A DNA stretch of 64,000 nucleotides, from positions 62,001 to 126,000 of the forward strand of contig NZ_RYZR01000007.1 of NCBI RefSeq assembly GCF_003977615.1. The letters are read 5' to 3'. The notes beneath the pieces are model-generated. The model saw nothing but the letters and a program-made list of their open reading frames with translations. It was not told the origin of the DNA and did no database searches. The DNA is from Dyella dinghuensis. Lineage in GTDB: Bacteria > Pseudomonadota > Gammaproteobacteria > Xanthomonadales > Rhodanobacteraceae. Made by a program: the position numbers and the translations under genes. Positions 28,083 through 58,060 of the stretch are shown here, piece after piece (position 1 is the first letter of the stretch; each line of letters begins with the position of its first letter).

Positions 28083-28202
28083 CCACTCATCGAGACCGGC
28101 TGAGGGACAGGCCCTTTGAAGCCGGGGCAACCTGCAGGATCAAACCTGCAACGGTGCCAACTCCTGCGGGGCGGCGACTAGCGCCGACCGGTAGATGGGA
28201 TG
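28083..28202 (+). ncRNA. SAM-I riboswitch (S box)
   Basis: Conserved core segments appear in order: GCTGAGGGACAGGCCC, GAAGCCGGGGCAACC, ACGGTGCCAACTCCTGC and the closing AGATGGGA. P1 forms from CTCATC (28086-28091) and GATGGG (28194-28199). It should bind S-adenosylmethionine and turn down the metX-metB-hom operon when SAM is high. No T run follows, so control is probably at translation, through the hairpins at 28201-28240 and 28251-28282. Confidence 0.93.
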
Positions 28203-36010: not shown

Positions 36011-36143
36011 CCTTCTCCCCTTCGGGGAGAAGGCCGGGATGAGGGGTGATCTTGCGAACGCGCTGAAACAAAAGCTCGCTTTGAACGAGAGTCCAACGCG
36101 AGCGTGACCCCTCACCCCAACCCTCTCCCCAAAGGGGAGAGGG
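36011..36143. repeat. Inverted pair of GC-rich palindromes (REP/BIME-like)
   Basis: Palindromes CCTTCTCCCC/GGGGAGAAGG (36011-36033) and CCCTCTCCCC/GGGGAGAGGG (36121-36143) face each other with GATGAGGGGT and ACCCCTCACCCC tails. The same family as the element inside ppc (39371-39473) and related to the one at 1551-1657. Here it sits between the ends of ilvE and ahcY. Confidence 0.8.
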
Positions 36144-36154
36144 GGAAAGGCCTA

Positions 36155-37588
<1,434 letters not shown>

Positions 37589-37660
37589 CAAGGATGTCTC
37601 CGAGTCTCATTGGGGAAATCCGGCTGGGTGAGCCGGATCGACGCGAGTACTTCGCGTCAT

Positions 37661-37731
37661 GAGCGCCGTTCTAGTCGAAGCATCCACCGAGCCTGGCCGT
37701 CAGCATTCACGGTCGCAGCGCCCCTCGGCGG
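37661..37731 (-). ncRNA. SAH riboswitch
   Basis: Read on the minus strand: P1 5' arm CCGCCGAG, the conserved GGGGCGCTGCGACCG, then ACGGCCAGGCTCGGTGG closing P1, and AACGGCGCTC forming the pseudoknot with GGCGCTG. All core elements of the S-adenosylhomocysteine-sensing class are present, and it precedes ahcY, its standard target. It should switch ahcY on when SAH accumulates. Two perfect hairpins (37640-37658 and about 37619-37638) lie between it and the ATG. Confidence 0.93.
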
Positions 37732-37831
37732 GAAGGCTCCCATTTTAACCGCACTCACGCCCTTATGACGACTTGGAACGGGCAGCTTCACGCAAATTCT
37801 GTAGGCTAGGCCGTTCATACCCGGAGGATCC

Positions 37832-40642
37832 ATGGAAGCCAGTCGCGACCCTGAATTTCTGCCCCATGACGGGCCGCTGAGAGAAGACGTGCATCGGCTC
37901 GGGGCGATGGTTGGCCGCATGCTGGCTGAACAGGGGGGCGAGGCGTTTTTTCAGCGCGTGGAGCATGTACGCACGGCTTCCATCGCGCGCCGCCGCGACG
38001 GGCACGCTGTCGACGATCTCGCCGATTCCCTGGCAGGACTCGATGCACACGCGGCCGAATCGCTGGCGCGTGCGTTCGCGGCGTACTTTCAGGCAGTGAA
38101 CACGGCCGAGCGCGTTCATCGCATTCGCCGTCGCCGCGACTATCAACGCGAAGGCAGTGCGCCGCAGCCCGAATCGCTGCTCGATGTGCTACAGCGATTG
38201 AAAGAGCAGGGCGTGGGCGCCGATGAGTTGCTTGAGTGGCTGTACAAGTTGAAAGTCGAGCCGGTCTTCACCGCGCATCCGACAGAAGCAATTCGCCGGT
38301 CGTTGCTCGAGAAGGAACAGGCCATCGTGCGCGCGCTGGTCGATAACTTCGATCCCACGCGCACGCCACAAGAGCGCAAGGAAGATGACGATCGTATCTT
38401 CATGGCGTTGTCGTCCGGCTGGCAAACGGCAGAAGCGTCGCCGATTCGTCCCACGGTCCAGGACGAACATCATCACGTTGGTTTTTATCTCGCCAATCCG
38501 ATTTATCGCATCATTCCGGCGTTCTACGAAGTACTCGCCGATGCGTTGCAAACCGTCTACAACGTCGCCGTGCCACTGCCGCGATTCTTGAGCTTTGCAA
38601 CATGGGTCGGCGGCGACATGGATGGCAACCCCAATGTCGGCGCAGAAACGATTGCAAACAGTCTGGCGACACAACGCGCGCATGTGCTCGAGCATTACAT
38701 CGCCGACGTGGATGGCCTCGCACGATTGCTCAGTCAGACGGATGATCGTGTCGATTTCGAGCCTGCATTGCTGCAACGTCTCGAAACCTATCGCGAACAG
38801 TTTCCGCGCGCGGCCGCAAAAATCCGCCCACGTCATGCGGATATGCCGTATCGATGCTTTCTGACCTTGATCCGCGCGCGCCTGGAGGCGACGCTCGAAG
38901 AAGGTCACGCAGAGGGTTATGCCTCGGCAGAGGAGTTACTCGACGATCTTCTGTTGATCGTGCACGGGCTTATCGATCATCGCGGATTGAATGCGGGTGC
39001 TTATGCAGTCCGCCGTTTGATCTGGCGTGTACGTACCTTCGGTTTTCATCTGGCACGCCTGGATGTGCGCCAGGATTCGCGTGTGCATGACGATGCGCTG
39101 GCTGCGCTGCTTGGCGATGAAACATGGTCGCAGCGAGCGCCATCCGAACGTGTCGAGGCGCTGCGCCTGTATGCGAGCGGCGAAAAAGCGCTGGCAAAGA
39201 GCGACGATGCGCAGGCGGAATCCCTGCGCGCCGTCTTCGCCACGCTCAACGAATCCCGCGGCCGCTACGGCAAAGATGCGATCGGCCTCTACATCATCAG
39301 CATGGCGCGCTCCGCCGCCGACGTGTTGGCGGTGCTGGCGCTGGCGCGCTACGGTGGTTTTACGATCACTCCCTCTCCCCTTTGGGGAGAGGGGCGGGGT
39401 GAGGGGACAATCTCGCGGGAAGATTCCGCTCCGCACAGCCCCTCACCCAACCCTCTCCCCAGAGGGGAGAGGGCTGACAGCGTGCCGCTGGACATCGCAC
39501 CGCTGTTCGAAACTGTCGACGATCTGAAGAACGCGCCCGATACCTTGCGCGCGCTGCTGGATGATCCAGTTTATCGCGCGCATTTGCTGGCACGCGACGA
39601 TCGCCAATGGGTGATGCTTGGCTATTCGGATAGCGGCAAGGATGGCGGCACGCTCGCCTCGCGGTGGGGTTTGCAGCGCGCGCAGGTTGAGTTACTGGAA
39701 GTCGCAAAACAAGCCGGTATTCGTCTTGCGTTCTTTCATGGGCGGGGCGGTTCCGCCAGCCGCGGCGGCGCGCGCATCACGCCTGCGCTGATGTCTTCGC
39801 CGCGTGGCTCAGTGGGCGGTGTCTTGCGCGTGACGGAGCAGGGCGAGGTGATTCACCGCAAGTACGGCATTCGTGCACTCGCGCTGCGCAATCTGGAGCA
39901 GACGGTGGGTGCGGTGCTGCGCGCGAGTCTGCGTCCGCGCGAAGACGAGCCGCGCGAGCAGGAGTGGCGCGAATACATGAACGCGCTGGCGGCGGATAGT
40001 CGCCGTGCGTATCGCGAACTTGTCGATCATGAGGGATTCGTCGATTACTTTCGTGCCGCGACGCCCATCGACGTCATCGAACAGATGGCGCTAGGTTCGC
40101 GTCCGTCGCGTCGCCGCAGCATGCGCGGCGTCGAAGATCTGCGCGCCATTCCGTGGGTTTTCGCGTGGACGCAGTGCCGTTCCATCATCACCGGCTGGTA
40201 CGGCCTGGGCACGGCGCTTGAACAGGCAGCCGCCAAACACGGCGAGAAGGCGTTGGAGGACATGGCGCAGCATTGGCCGTTCTTCGTCAACGTTCTGGAC
40301 GACGTCGAAATGGTGCTCGCCAAGTGCGATCTCGATATCGCCGAAGCATTTTCTAAGTTGGCGGGTCCATTGCACGACACGTTTTTCGCGATGATTAAGT
40401 CGGAATTCGAACGCACGCGCCATTGGCTATTGCGGTTGAAGAACAGCGAAGAACTGCTTCGCGACGATCCGCGCTTGTCTCTGTCGATTCGACTGCGCAA
40501 TCCATATGTCGATCCGATGAGCTTGCTGCAGGTGGACCTGCTCCAACGCTGGCGCGAAAGTGATCGCAGCGATGATCGATTGCTGCACGCGCTCGTCGCG
40601 AGCGTCAACGGCGTCGCTCAGGGTCTGCAAAATACGGGTTGA
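37832..40642 (+). CDS. ppc: Phosphoenolpyruvate carboxylase with in-frame repeat insertion
   Basis: A 936-residue enzyme that carboxylates PEP to oxaloacetate. Motifs are intact: FTAHPTEA (near 147), the metal Glu560 in LFETVDDL, GYSDSGKDGG (near 596), HGRGGS (near 638) and the C-terminal QNTG. The usual GRGGxxGRGG motif reads GRGGSASRGG. Residues about 514-548 are foreign-looking (PSPLWGEGRGEG then SPSPNPLPRGER): they are encoded by a palindromic repeat inserted in frame, about a dozen residues before the catalytic Glu560. This explains why the protein is longer than usual. GGAGG precedes the ATG. Confidence 0.95.
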   Translation: MEASRDPEFLPHDGPLREDVHRLGAMVGRMLAEQGGEAFFQRVEHVRTASIARRRDGHAVDDLADSLAGLDAHAAESLARAFAAYFQAVNTAERVHRIRRRRDYQREGSAPQPESLLDVLQRLKEQGVGADELLEWLYKLKVEPVFTAHPTEAIRRSLLEKEQAIVRALVDNFDPTRTPQERKEDDDRIFMALSSGWQTAEASPIRPTVQDEHHHVGFYLANPIYRIIPAFYEVLADALQTVYNVAVPLPRFLSFATWVGGDMDGNPNVGAETIANSLATQRAHVLEHYIADVDGLARLLSQTDDRVDFEPALLQRLETYREQFPRAAAKIRPRHADMPYRCFLTLIRARLEATLEEGHAEGYASAEELLDDLLLIVHGLIDHRGLNAGAYAVRRLIWRVRTFGFHLARLDVRQDSRVHDDALAALLGDETWSQRAPSERVEALRLYASGEKALAKSDDAQAESLRAVFATLNESRGRYGKDAIGLYIISMARSAADVLAVLALARYGGFTITPSPLWGEGRGEGTISREDSAPHSPSPNPLPRGERADSVPLDIAPLFETVDDLKNAPDTLRALLDDPVYRAHLLARDDRQWVMLGYSDSGKDGGTLASRWGLQRAQVELLEVAKQAGIRLAFFHGRGGSASRGGARITPALMSSPRGSVGGVLRVTEQGEVIHRKYGIRALALRNLEQTVGAVLRASLRPREDEPREQEWREYMNALAADSRRAYRELVDHEGFVDYFRAATPIDVIEQMALGSRPSRRRSMRGVEDLRAIPWVFAWTQCRSIITGWYGLGTALEQAAAKHGEKALEDMAQHWPFFVNVLDDVEMVLAKCDLDIAEAFSKLAGPLHDTFFAMIKSEFERTRHWLLRLKNSEELLRDDPRLSLSIRLRNPYVDPMSLLQVDLLQRWRESDRSDDRLLHALVASVNGVAQGLQNTG
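39371..39473. repeat. Palindromic repeat pair inside ppc
   Basis: CCCTCTCCCC-TTT-GGGGAGAGGG (39371-39393) and CCCTCTCCCC-AGA-GGGGAGAGGG (39451-39473) in inverted orientation with C- and G-rich tails. The same family as the intergenic unit at 36011-36143. It stays open in the ppc frame and encodes about 35 residues. Confidence 0.9.
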
Positions 40643-40700
40643 TGCTGGTTTTAGAGCAGATCACAGGAGCTGGCCAAGAATCGCGGCCCCGCTTTTTGCC

Positions 40701-40803
40701 CGTCATTCCGGCGAAGGCCGGAATCCAGTGTCGATAAGCCTCAACAATACTTATACACATCAGACTCTATCGCTACTGGATTCCGGCCTCCGCCGGAATG
40801 ACG
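40701..40803. repeat. 103-bp element with 29-bp terminal inverted repeats (MITE-like)
   Basis: CGTCATTCCGGCGAAGGCCG... at 40701-40729 matches the reverse complement of 40775-40803 at 28 of 29 positions; each end is itself a small palindrome (TTCCGGC...GCCGGAA). This resembles the CGTCATTCCGGC family of dispersed repeats in many proteobacteria. It lies between the converging ends of ppc and uup and may act as an RNA hairpin for both. Confidence 0.85.
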
Positions 40804-40843
40804 GTGTAGATTTGATAGTCGCGCGACGTTTTGTTGGCGGCTC

Positions 40844-57678: not shown

Positions 57679-58060
<382 letters not shown>

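What the first reader, a model, noticed from the sequence alone, without database searches (positions are those of the whole stretch)
39371..39473. Palindromic repeat pair inserted in frame in phosphoenolpyruvate carboxylase
Two near-identical palindromes in inverted orientation, the same family as an intergenic unit at 36011-36143, lie inside ppc and are translated. They add about 35 residues (including NPLPRGER) just before the catalytic Glu560, yet the enzyme's motifs downstream remain in frame. This parallels the Rickettsia palindromic elements that create new protein segments. A core metabolic enzyme that tolerates such an insertion this close to the active site is a useful case of repeat-driven protein evolution.
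Basis: partly seen in the sequence, partly recalled or inferred. Interest (0 to 1): 0.75.

Follow-up and report, generated by a model that had tools for sequence, protein, structure and literature searches.

The report
Translated triplex-DNA repeats in enzyme loops
A short repeated DNA element, of a known type that can fold into a triple helix, has been inserted in frame into a surface loop of a central metabolic enzyme, and related bacteria show the same kind of insertion at the same spot of this enzyme and of at least four other core proteins.

Summary
Window 39371-39473 is an inverted pair of GC-rich palindromic units inside an intact ppc frame (936 aa). It adds about 35 residues that most relatives lack and belongs to the family of the intergenic pair at 36011-36143. 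Its first unit matches exactly the published intrastrand-triplex motif "TMECO"; the GTAG/CGTC tags of the large REP superfamilies are not enriched. The insert lengthens a disordered helix-to-strand loop about 12 residues before Glu560 (E. coli residue 506); it is near the active site only in sequence.

Related pairs sit in the same ppc loop in 13 of 79 related proteins, with two reading frames and differing linkers; the gene tree needs at least 8 changes. Units also recur at one site in uvrD (12 of 27), lpd (12 of 28), hrpA (12 of 16) and lhr (11 of 15). Substitutions in the ppc and uvrD inserts show no third-position excess. The ppc linker is closest to uvrD inserts, which suggests gene-to-gene spread. 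Best reading: repeated insertion, filtered by frame, stop codons and tolerant loops. New variant of a known kind (intragenic REP/RPE).

The parts
37832..40642 (+). ppc, phosphoenolpyruvate carboxylase, 936 aa, intact frame through the element
   Evidence: ORF list; Pfam PF00311; model pTM 0.85, best PDB match E. coli PPC 1jqn
39371..39473 (+). inserted repeat pair (residues about 514-548)
   Evidence: repeat search; absent from most of the genus; pLDDT below 50 at 514-546
39371..39405 (+). first unit: exact TMECO intrastrand-triplex motif (CCCTCTCCC-5-GGGAGAGGG-3-GGGTGAGGG)
   Evidence: pattern match, motif as defined in PMC4666352 (section read)
39407..39438 (+). 32-nt linker; the 34-nt stretch compared (one base more on each side) is closest to uvrD inserts (0.82, 0.77)
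39439..39473 (-). second unit, inverted; does not fit the motif, for lack of one base (CACCCAACCC where the intergenic copy has CACCCCAACCC), as in the uvrD copy
   Evidence: sequence
39509..39511 (+). codon of Glu560, aligned with E. coli PPC residue 506 (that this is a metal ligand is recalled)
   Evidence: alignment 553-936 to 499-883
36011..36143 (.). intergenic pair of the same family; 36109-36143 is an exact TMECO motif on the - strand

Best explanation
The segment is an insertion of a small non-autonomous repeat (an inverted pair of triplex-motif units, 105 to about 200 bp, dispersed in the genome) into ppc. Shown: the insert, its genomic family, its absence in most relatives, an open frame, and related inserts at the same loop in other genera and at one site each in four other genes. 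Inferred: copies land widely, and those that remain in a gene are in frame, free of stop codons and in an exposed loop or interdomain linker. The second unit is open in nearly all phases; the first unit of the main type has TGA in one of its three frames, and that frame is not seen in use. The new peptide is then carried as near-neutral filler and decays by substitution and in-frame indels. In this genus the ppc copy has the same short linker type as the uvrD copy, so it probably came from uvrD or from a shared source.
For: Recurrence at one loop: 13 of 79 ppc rows, fewest changes 8, one-clade tree rejected (AU p 0.00125), 18 losses needed for a single gain. Units (up to 5 substitutions) in the ppc loops: 29 in 3,948 nt, against 4 in 239,055 nt outside. 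Same pattern in uvrD 12 of 27, lpd 12 of 28, hrpA 12 of 16, lhr 11 of 15. Frames: tail read as GEG 19, GVRG 4, TGA 0, of 23 readable inserts. Second units of 36 other dimers open in 69, 70 and 67 of 72 orientations by phase. Codon-position differences: ppc insert 4/5/4 against 78/37/419 in the rest; uvrD 107/83/74 against 872/413/4160. Low-confidence loop, normal fold otherwise. Linker of ppc: uvrD 0.82 and 0.77, ppc of D. acidiphila 0.76, best of the compared pool of other copies 0.62, shuffles at most 0.65.
Against: No target-site duplication and no dedicated transposase was found: one Y1_Tnp gene in this genome, with no unit in the 7.5-kb stretch around it, and none at E<=0.001 in Fulvimonas, which has 160 palindromes. 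The lpd inserts show a mild third-position excess (20/14/28 and 12/9/19). Inserts differ less per site than third codon positions of the same genes (0.14-0.18 against 0.30-0.47, worked out), so some constraint, homogenisation or younger age remains. Dimers as a whole are open in fewer frames than random segments of the same loci (0.30 against 0.46; mono-shuffled dimers 0.27). The frame count was made on open ORFs, so a stop frame could not have been collected there; that ppc matches hold no stop rests, where every listed ppc match has none. Translation is not shown by any protein data.
Confidence: 0.78

Rival explanations
1. One ancient insertion in ppc at the base of the family, lost or eroded many times, explains all copies.
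For: Loops of 21-31 residues, some with visible remnants, exist (12 of 79 rows), so erosion happens. The uvrD, hrpA and lhr inserts look largely inherited within the genus. The label is more clustered on the tree than shuffled labels. Some ppc inserts are clearly related to each other: L074 and L075 linkers 0.79, G000 and D. acidiphila 0.76.
Against: Needs 18 losses against 8 changes. Two different frames of the first unit (GEG and GVRG). Apart from the pairs named, the best linker match of each ppc insert to another ppc insert is 0.59-0.69; the Frateuria flava insert is closer to its own genome's copies (0.73) than to any other ppc insert (0.66), while Fulvimonas is undecided (0.67 against 0.66). 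The other genomes' own copies were not sampled.
Confidence: 0.15
2. The insert is a selected, functional addition (longer linker, mRNA hairpin for pausing or RNase III control, regulation of PPC).
For: The mRNA of 39361-39483 folds to -87.4 kcal/mol against -51.3 (sd 3.65) for shuffles; arms change less than linkers in uvrD and lpd; recurrence at the same loop.
Against: No third-position excess in ppc and uvrD inserts; most relatives lack it (54 of 79 have a loop under 21 residues); hairpin stability follows from the repeat itself.
Confidence: 0.1
3. Assembly error, pseudogene, or translational bypass or splicing of the segment.
For: Repeats invite misassembly; a very stable hairpin could stall ribosomes.
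Against: Assemblies of many species carry such inserts; the ppc matches listed hold no stop; a bypassed or spliced insert would not need to keep frame; downstream motifs and fold are intact.
Confidence: 0.04

Closest known systems
Intragenic GTAG/CGTC REPs, including Xanthomonas recB (Di Nocera et al. 2013, PMC3733652; abstract, sections 5 and 15, part 1 of section 17, and passages seen)
   Same: Small palindromic repeats, often dimers, inside genes and encoding 20-30 residues; helicase and repair genes among hosts; X. campestris and X. oryzae recB carry REPs at about the same site; loops or linkers proposed as tolerant sites.
   Different: Our units show no enrichment of GTAG or CGTC tags. 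That paper says REPs in other genes of the same functional category sit at different sites; here five genes are hit at one site each across species. Its main text has no occurrence of Dyella, Rhodanobacter or carboxylase.
TMECO intrastrand-triplex motif (Holder et al. 2015, PMC4666352; abstract, sections 15-18, part 1 of section 20, and passages seen)
   Same: Exact match of the first unit to the published pattern; inverted pairs known in E. coli; small deletions inside inverted pairs reported.
   Different: In E. coli MG1655 always intergenic; coding copies are not described in the parts I read.
Rickettsia palindromic elements (known here through PMC3733652 and recall)
   Same: Palindromic repeats translated in frame inside many unrelated proteins.
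   Different: Different taxon; RPE sequences were not compared here.

Membership tests
TMECO intrastrand-triplex motif | CCCTCNCCC N3-6 GGGNGAGGG N3 GGGNGAGGG | tested here: met
   Exact at 39371-39405 (+) and 36109-36143 (-); 0 hits (up to 2 substitutions) in 20 shuffled windows; 35 of 95 census units exact, 47 of 95 within 2 substitutions. The second ppc unit at 39439-39473 does not match.
TMECO intrastrand-triplex motif | forms a triplex in vitro | not testable with these tools
   Shown for E. coli sequences in PMC4666352 (section read)
GTAG / CGTC REP superfamilies | unpaired GTAG or CGTC tag at one end of the palindrome | tested here: not met
   82 unit ends of 41 dimers. GTAG/CTAC: 2 of 82 in the outer 14 nt (random 3.5%), 2 of 82 in the inner 30 nt (8.1%). 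CGTC/GACG: 6 of 82 outer (13.5%), 9 of 82 inner (30.1%)
RAYT-mobilised REPIN | paired REPs | tested here: met
   41 inward-facing dimers in the fetched loci
RAYT-mobilised REPIN | associated Y1 transposase gene flanked by the repeats | tested here: not met
   One Y1_Tnp in G000 with no unit in the 7.5-kb stretch fetched around it; none at E<=0.001 in Fulvimonas or G006 despite 160 and 76 palindromes
Rickettsia palindromic element | membership of an RPE sequence family | not tested
   No RPE sequence was fetched
Palindromic repeat translated in frame inside a gene (general kind) | dispersed genomic repeat, inside an intact ORF, absent in most orthologues | tested here: met

The most novel reading that the evidence does not exclude
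A short sub-lineage of the triplex element, 105 bp from unit to unit and open in the used frame, spreads from gene to gene as a mobile protein linker (uvrD to ppc in this genus), so that disordered loops of several core enzymes are repeatedly written and rewritten by one repeat family.
Probability: 0.35. Interest if true: 0.8.

Novelty: new variant of a known kind. Interest (0 to 1): 0.62.

Why it matters
It gives a replicated natural experiment on how non-coding repeats become protein. The same element family enters the same loops of PPC, UvrD, lipoyl-E3, HrpA and Lhr in many species, with filled, decayed and empty alleles to compare. It makes two questions testable: whether insertion or only survival is site-specific, and whether triplex- or hairpin-forming sequence in a housekeeping gene has any cost. 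It also warns that PSPLRGEGRGEG-like stretches in proteins of these bacteria can be translated DNA repeats rather than conserved domains.

Tried and rejected
Reading the element as a GTAG or CGTC REP was rejected. RAYT mobilisation was not supported. A target-site duplication search gave no signal (mean longest shared word 3.39 against 3.41 for shuffled partners, 41 dimers). A control pattern with reversed arms was useless because it is too similar to the real one (26 in and 3 outside the ppc loops); counts outside the loops were used instead. Purifying selection on the peptide was not seen in ppc and uvrD, and only a mild third-position excess in lpd. The idea that whole dimers are unusually open to translation failed. 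The idea that short pairs (spacing about 80) are confined to genes failed: in this genome the two of 41 are in ppc and uvrD, but in the genus L258 and L269 are short pairs in no clear gene, and L253 and L259 lie at uncertain gene starts; their linkers differ from that of ppc by eye. The lpd_G004 linker is no closer to that of ppc than its shuffles (0.63, shuffles up to 0.66). The idea that hosts are mainly helicases (3 of the 5 in-gene dimers of this genome) was not pursued; Frateuria flava has an ABC-F-like ATPase host. Three Fulvimonas candidates that my codon score flagged besides ppc (L271, L287, L291) had no Pfam match at E<=0.001; L271 and L291 look spurious. In one search the repeat label required a loop over 40 residues and a repeat-like peptide; L098 and G030 are degenerate members. 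A published report of repeat insertion in PPC was not found in the searches and 76 of the held open-access library; this does not prove absence.

Full report
What is there. Window 39371-39473 holds two 23-nt palindromes in an inverted pair, read through by ppc (37832-40642, 936 aa). The pattern occurs 4 times in the window against a mean of 0.00 in 100 shuffles. The other two copies form the intergenic pair at 36011-36143. The first ppc unit and one intergenic unit match exactly the G/C-rich intrastrand-triplex motif TMECO, 5'-CCCTCNCCC N3-6 GGGNGAGGG N3 GGGNGAGGG (motif from PMC4666352, section read; match). The second ppc unit misses one base.

The genome. The window lies in a 4.2-Mb assembly, probably a Dyella: the best-matching named ppc is from D. 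acidiphila, 91% identical; the genus is inferred. It has 68 exact copies of the palindrome pattern, and the pattern read backwards gives none. I fetched 44 stretches of this genome, 43 around repeat hits and one around a Y1_Tnp gene. This is not the complete set: the listing was cut (50 of 68 positions) and 14 of 54 candidates were not scored. With the window they hold 95 units of up to 4 substitutions and 41 inward-facing dimers. The inner ends share a longer plurality consensus, TTGGGGTGAGGGGCCAATCTTGCG. Both units lie inside a Pfam-supported ORF, between or within its domains, in 5 of the 41: ppc, uvrD, lpd (in the linker between lipoyl domain and E3), an Lhr-type helicase and an HrpA-type helicase with DUF3418. 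A sixth ORF (YdjC-like, L170) has the pair before its domain, probably ahead of the true start. Other ORFs that overlap units were not tested with Pfam.

Relatives. A search of 61 genomes gave matches in 59; the match in one of these (G013) is only the repeat peptide in uvrD, so 58 show ppc. Thirty loci were returned; 14 of them were used beside the 74 loci of named records, and the window's own; the other 15 are the same genes as named records. Genomes without a locus, mostly from other families, were not used. L133 and L134 gave no loop, L072 and L111 lacked an anchor but have short loops, which left 85 rows. After dropping 4 duplicates and 2 fragments, 79 rows went into the tree. Loops between LALAR-GG and APLFET fall into 54 short (under 21), 12 intermediate (21-31) and 13 with a repeat pair. 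The careful tree, built without the loop, needs at least 8 changes; one clade is rejected (AU p 0.00125); a single gain would need 18 losses. It is a gene tree, rooted at the midpoint for the loss count, and the count of changes alone cannot tell gain from loss.

Not all from one insertion. The first unit is read in two frames in ppc, GEG in 6 and GVRG in 4 of the readable inserts. Linkers differ: the F. flava insert is closer to other copies of its own genome (0.73) than to any other ppc insert (0.66), while Fulvimonas is undecided (0.67 against 0.66); L074 and L075 share a linker (0.79) and probably an insertion. Own-genome copies of the remaining species were not sampled. In the window's genome and D. 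acidiphila the linker belongs with uvrD inserts: ppc of G000 against uvrD of G006 0.82, uvrD of G000 0.77, ppc of D. acidiphila 0.76, best of the compared pool (copies of this genome, Fulvimonas and Frateuria) 0.62; 2,000 shuffles of each of the first three reached at most 0.65, 0.65 and 0.63. In 16 genomes of the genus, with at most 40 candidates scored in each, the best DNA matches to the ppc element other than itself are the uvrD copies of G000 and G006. Both gene copies in this genome have unit spacing 80 and lack the same base; no other of the 41 dimers has spacing 80. Short pairs also exist elsewhere in the genus, in no clear gene (L258, L269) or at uncertain gene starts (L253, L259), so shortness alone does not mark a coding sub-lineage.

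The same in other genes. Units with up to 5 substitutions occur in the matching loop of uvrD in 12 of 27 bounded genes (3 of 30 loci not bounded) and in the lpd linker in 12 of 28 (2 not bounded); in 16 genomes of the genus, hrpA 12 of 16 and lhr 11 of 15 (1 not bounded). The weakest of these rest on single units at 5 substitutions. In lpd the element stands where relatives have an Ala/Pro-rich linker. With the same rule ppc scores 15 of 84; outside the loops the unit is found 4 times in 239,055 nt of ppc frames, 4 times in 61,314 nt of uvrD frames (two of them upstream in G000) and once in 50,442 nt of lpd frames.

Why the frame survives. The tail of the first unit contains TGA in one frame. 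Of 23 inserts in ppc, uvrD and lpd whose tail could be read, 19 use GEG, 4 use GVRG and none uses the TGA frame; 22 further rows had no readable tail, many of them without an element. These were taken from open ORFs, so the zero is partly built in; independent of that, the ppc matches listed hold no stop, and 72 of 74 loci gave an open frame through the loop. In 36 other dimers of this genome, read in both orientations, second units are open in 69, 70 and 67 of 72 by phase, first units in 59, 34 and 45. Whole dimers are not unusually open (0.30 of frames against 0.46 in random segments and 0.27 in mono-shuffled dimers). Survival is therefore a filter, and long linkers with stops are expected to fail it.

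Effect on the protein. AlphaFold2 on 31 loci-derived sequences gives mean pLDDT 82.7 and pTM 0.85. Residues 514-546 are below 50 and lie between helix 495-507 and strand 555-559; shorter low stretches occur elsewhere, such as 639-647 and 754-780. The best PDB match is E. coli PPC 1jqn. Glu560 aligns with E. coli 506, a metal ligand (recalled). The loop enters the strand at the end away from Glu560, so the insert is probably on the far face of the barrel (inference; no coordinates were measured). Differences between the ppc inserts of G000 and D. acidiphila are 4/5/4 over codon positions (30 codons), against 78/37/419 in the rest; uvrD 107/83/74 against 872/413/4160 (summed over pairs of 6 genomes); lpd 20/14/28 and 12/9/19, a mild third-position excess. 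Arms diverge less than linkers in uvrD and lpd.

Other observations. The insert's mRNA folds at -87.4 kcal/mol (shuffle mean -51.3, z -9.9). Genomes with a ppc insert have more palindromes (median 35 in 13 genomes against 10 in 45; p 0.007, not corrected for relatedness), and none of the 13 has zero copies against 8 of 45 (counts, test). A further in-frame pair is in an ABC-F-like ATPase of F. flava.

Place among known things. In-gene palindromic repeats are known from Rickettsia and from REPs (PMC3733652, sections read), including one same-site case, Xanthomonas recB. TMECO motifs were described as always intergenic in E. coli MG1655 (PMC4666352). New here, as far as the searches show, are translated triplex-motif pairs, recurrence at one site in each of five core genes, the pattern of frames used, and the uvrD-like origin of the ppc copy.

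Check. 

Noticed in passing
uvrD of G001, G007, G013 (L193, L198, L195); lhr of G001, G006, G007, G013; ppc of G030 (L004); lpd of G010 (L227): A second palindromic repeat (core GCACATGGATGTGC in uvrD, GCGCCATCCATGGCGC in ppc of G030) is nested in or next to the hairpin loop of the triplex-motif unit and keeps the frame.
   Followed up: partly
hrpA of G015 (L333): The first unit is repeated several times in tandem inside the gene (SPSPLRGELPH repeats), in frame.
   Followed up: no
window 40700-40804: A different inverted pair (arms of 37 nt, 92% complementary, CCGTCATTCCGGCGAAGGCCGGAATCCAG type) lies just downstream of ppc (I3).
   Followed up: no
window 37654-37732 (-) and 28084-28201 (+): SAH riboswitch ahead of the ORF 36155-37591 (-), which looks like adenosylhomocysteinase (name by eye), and a SAM riboswitch; RNase P RNA at 57682-58059.
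   Followed up: no
G008 L253; G010 L259: Pairs with about 80 spacing lie in or just before the signal-peptide region of a sugar-binding-like protein and of a porin-like protein (names by eye); start sites are uncertain.
   Followed up: partly
G003, locus L135 and others: Sixteen near-identical Y1_Tnp genes (152-aa frames), likely an IS200-type burst.
   Followed up: no
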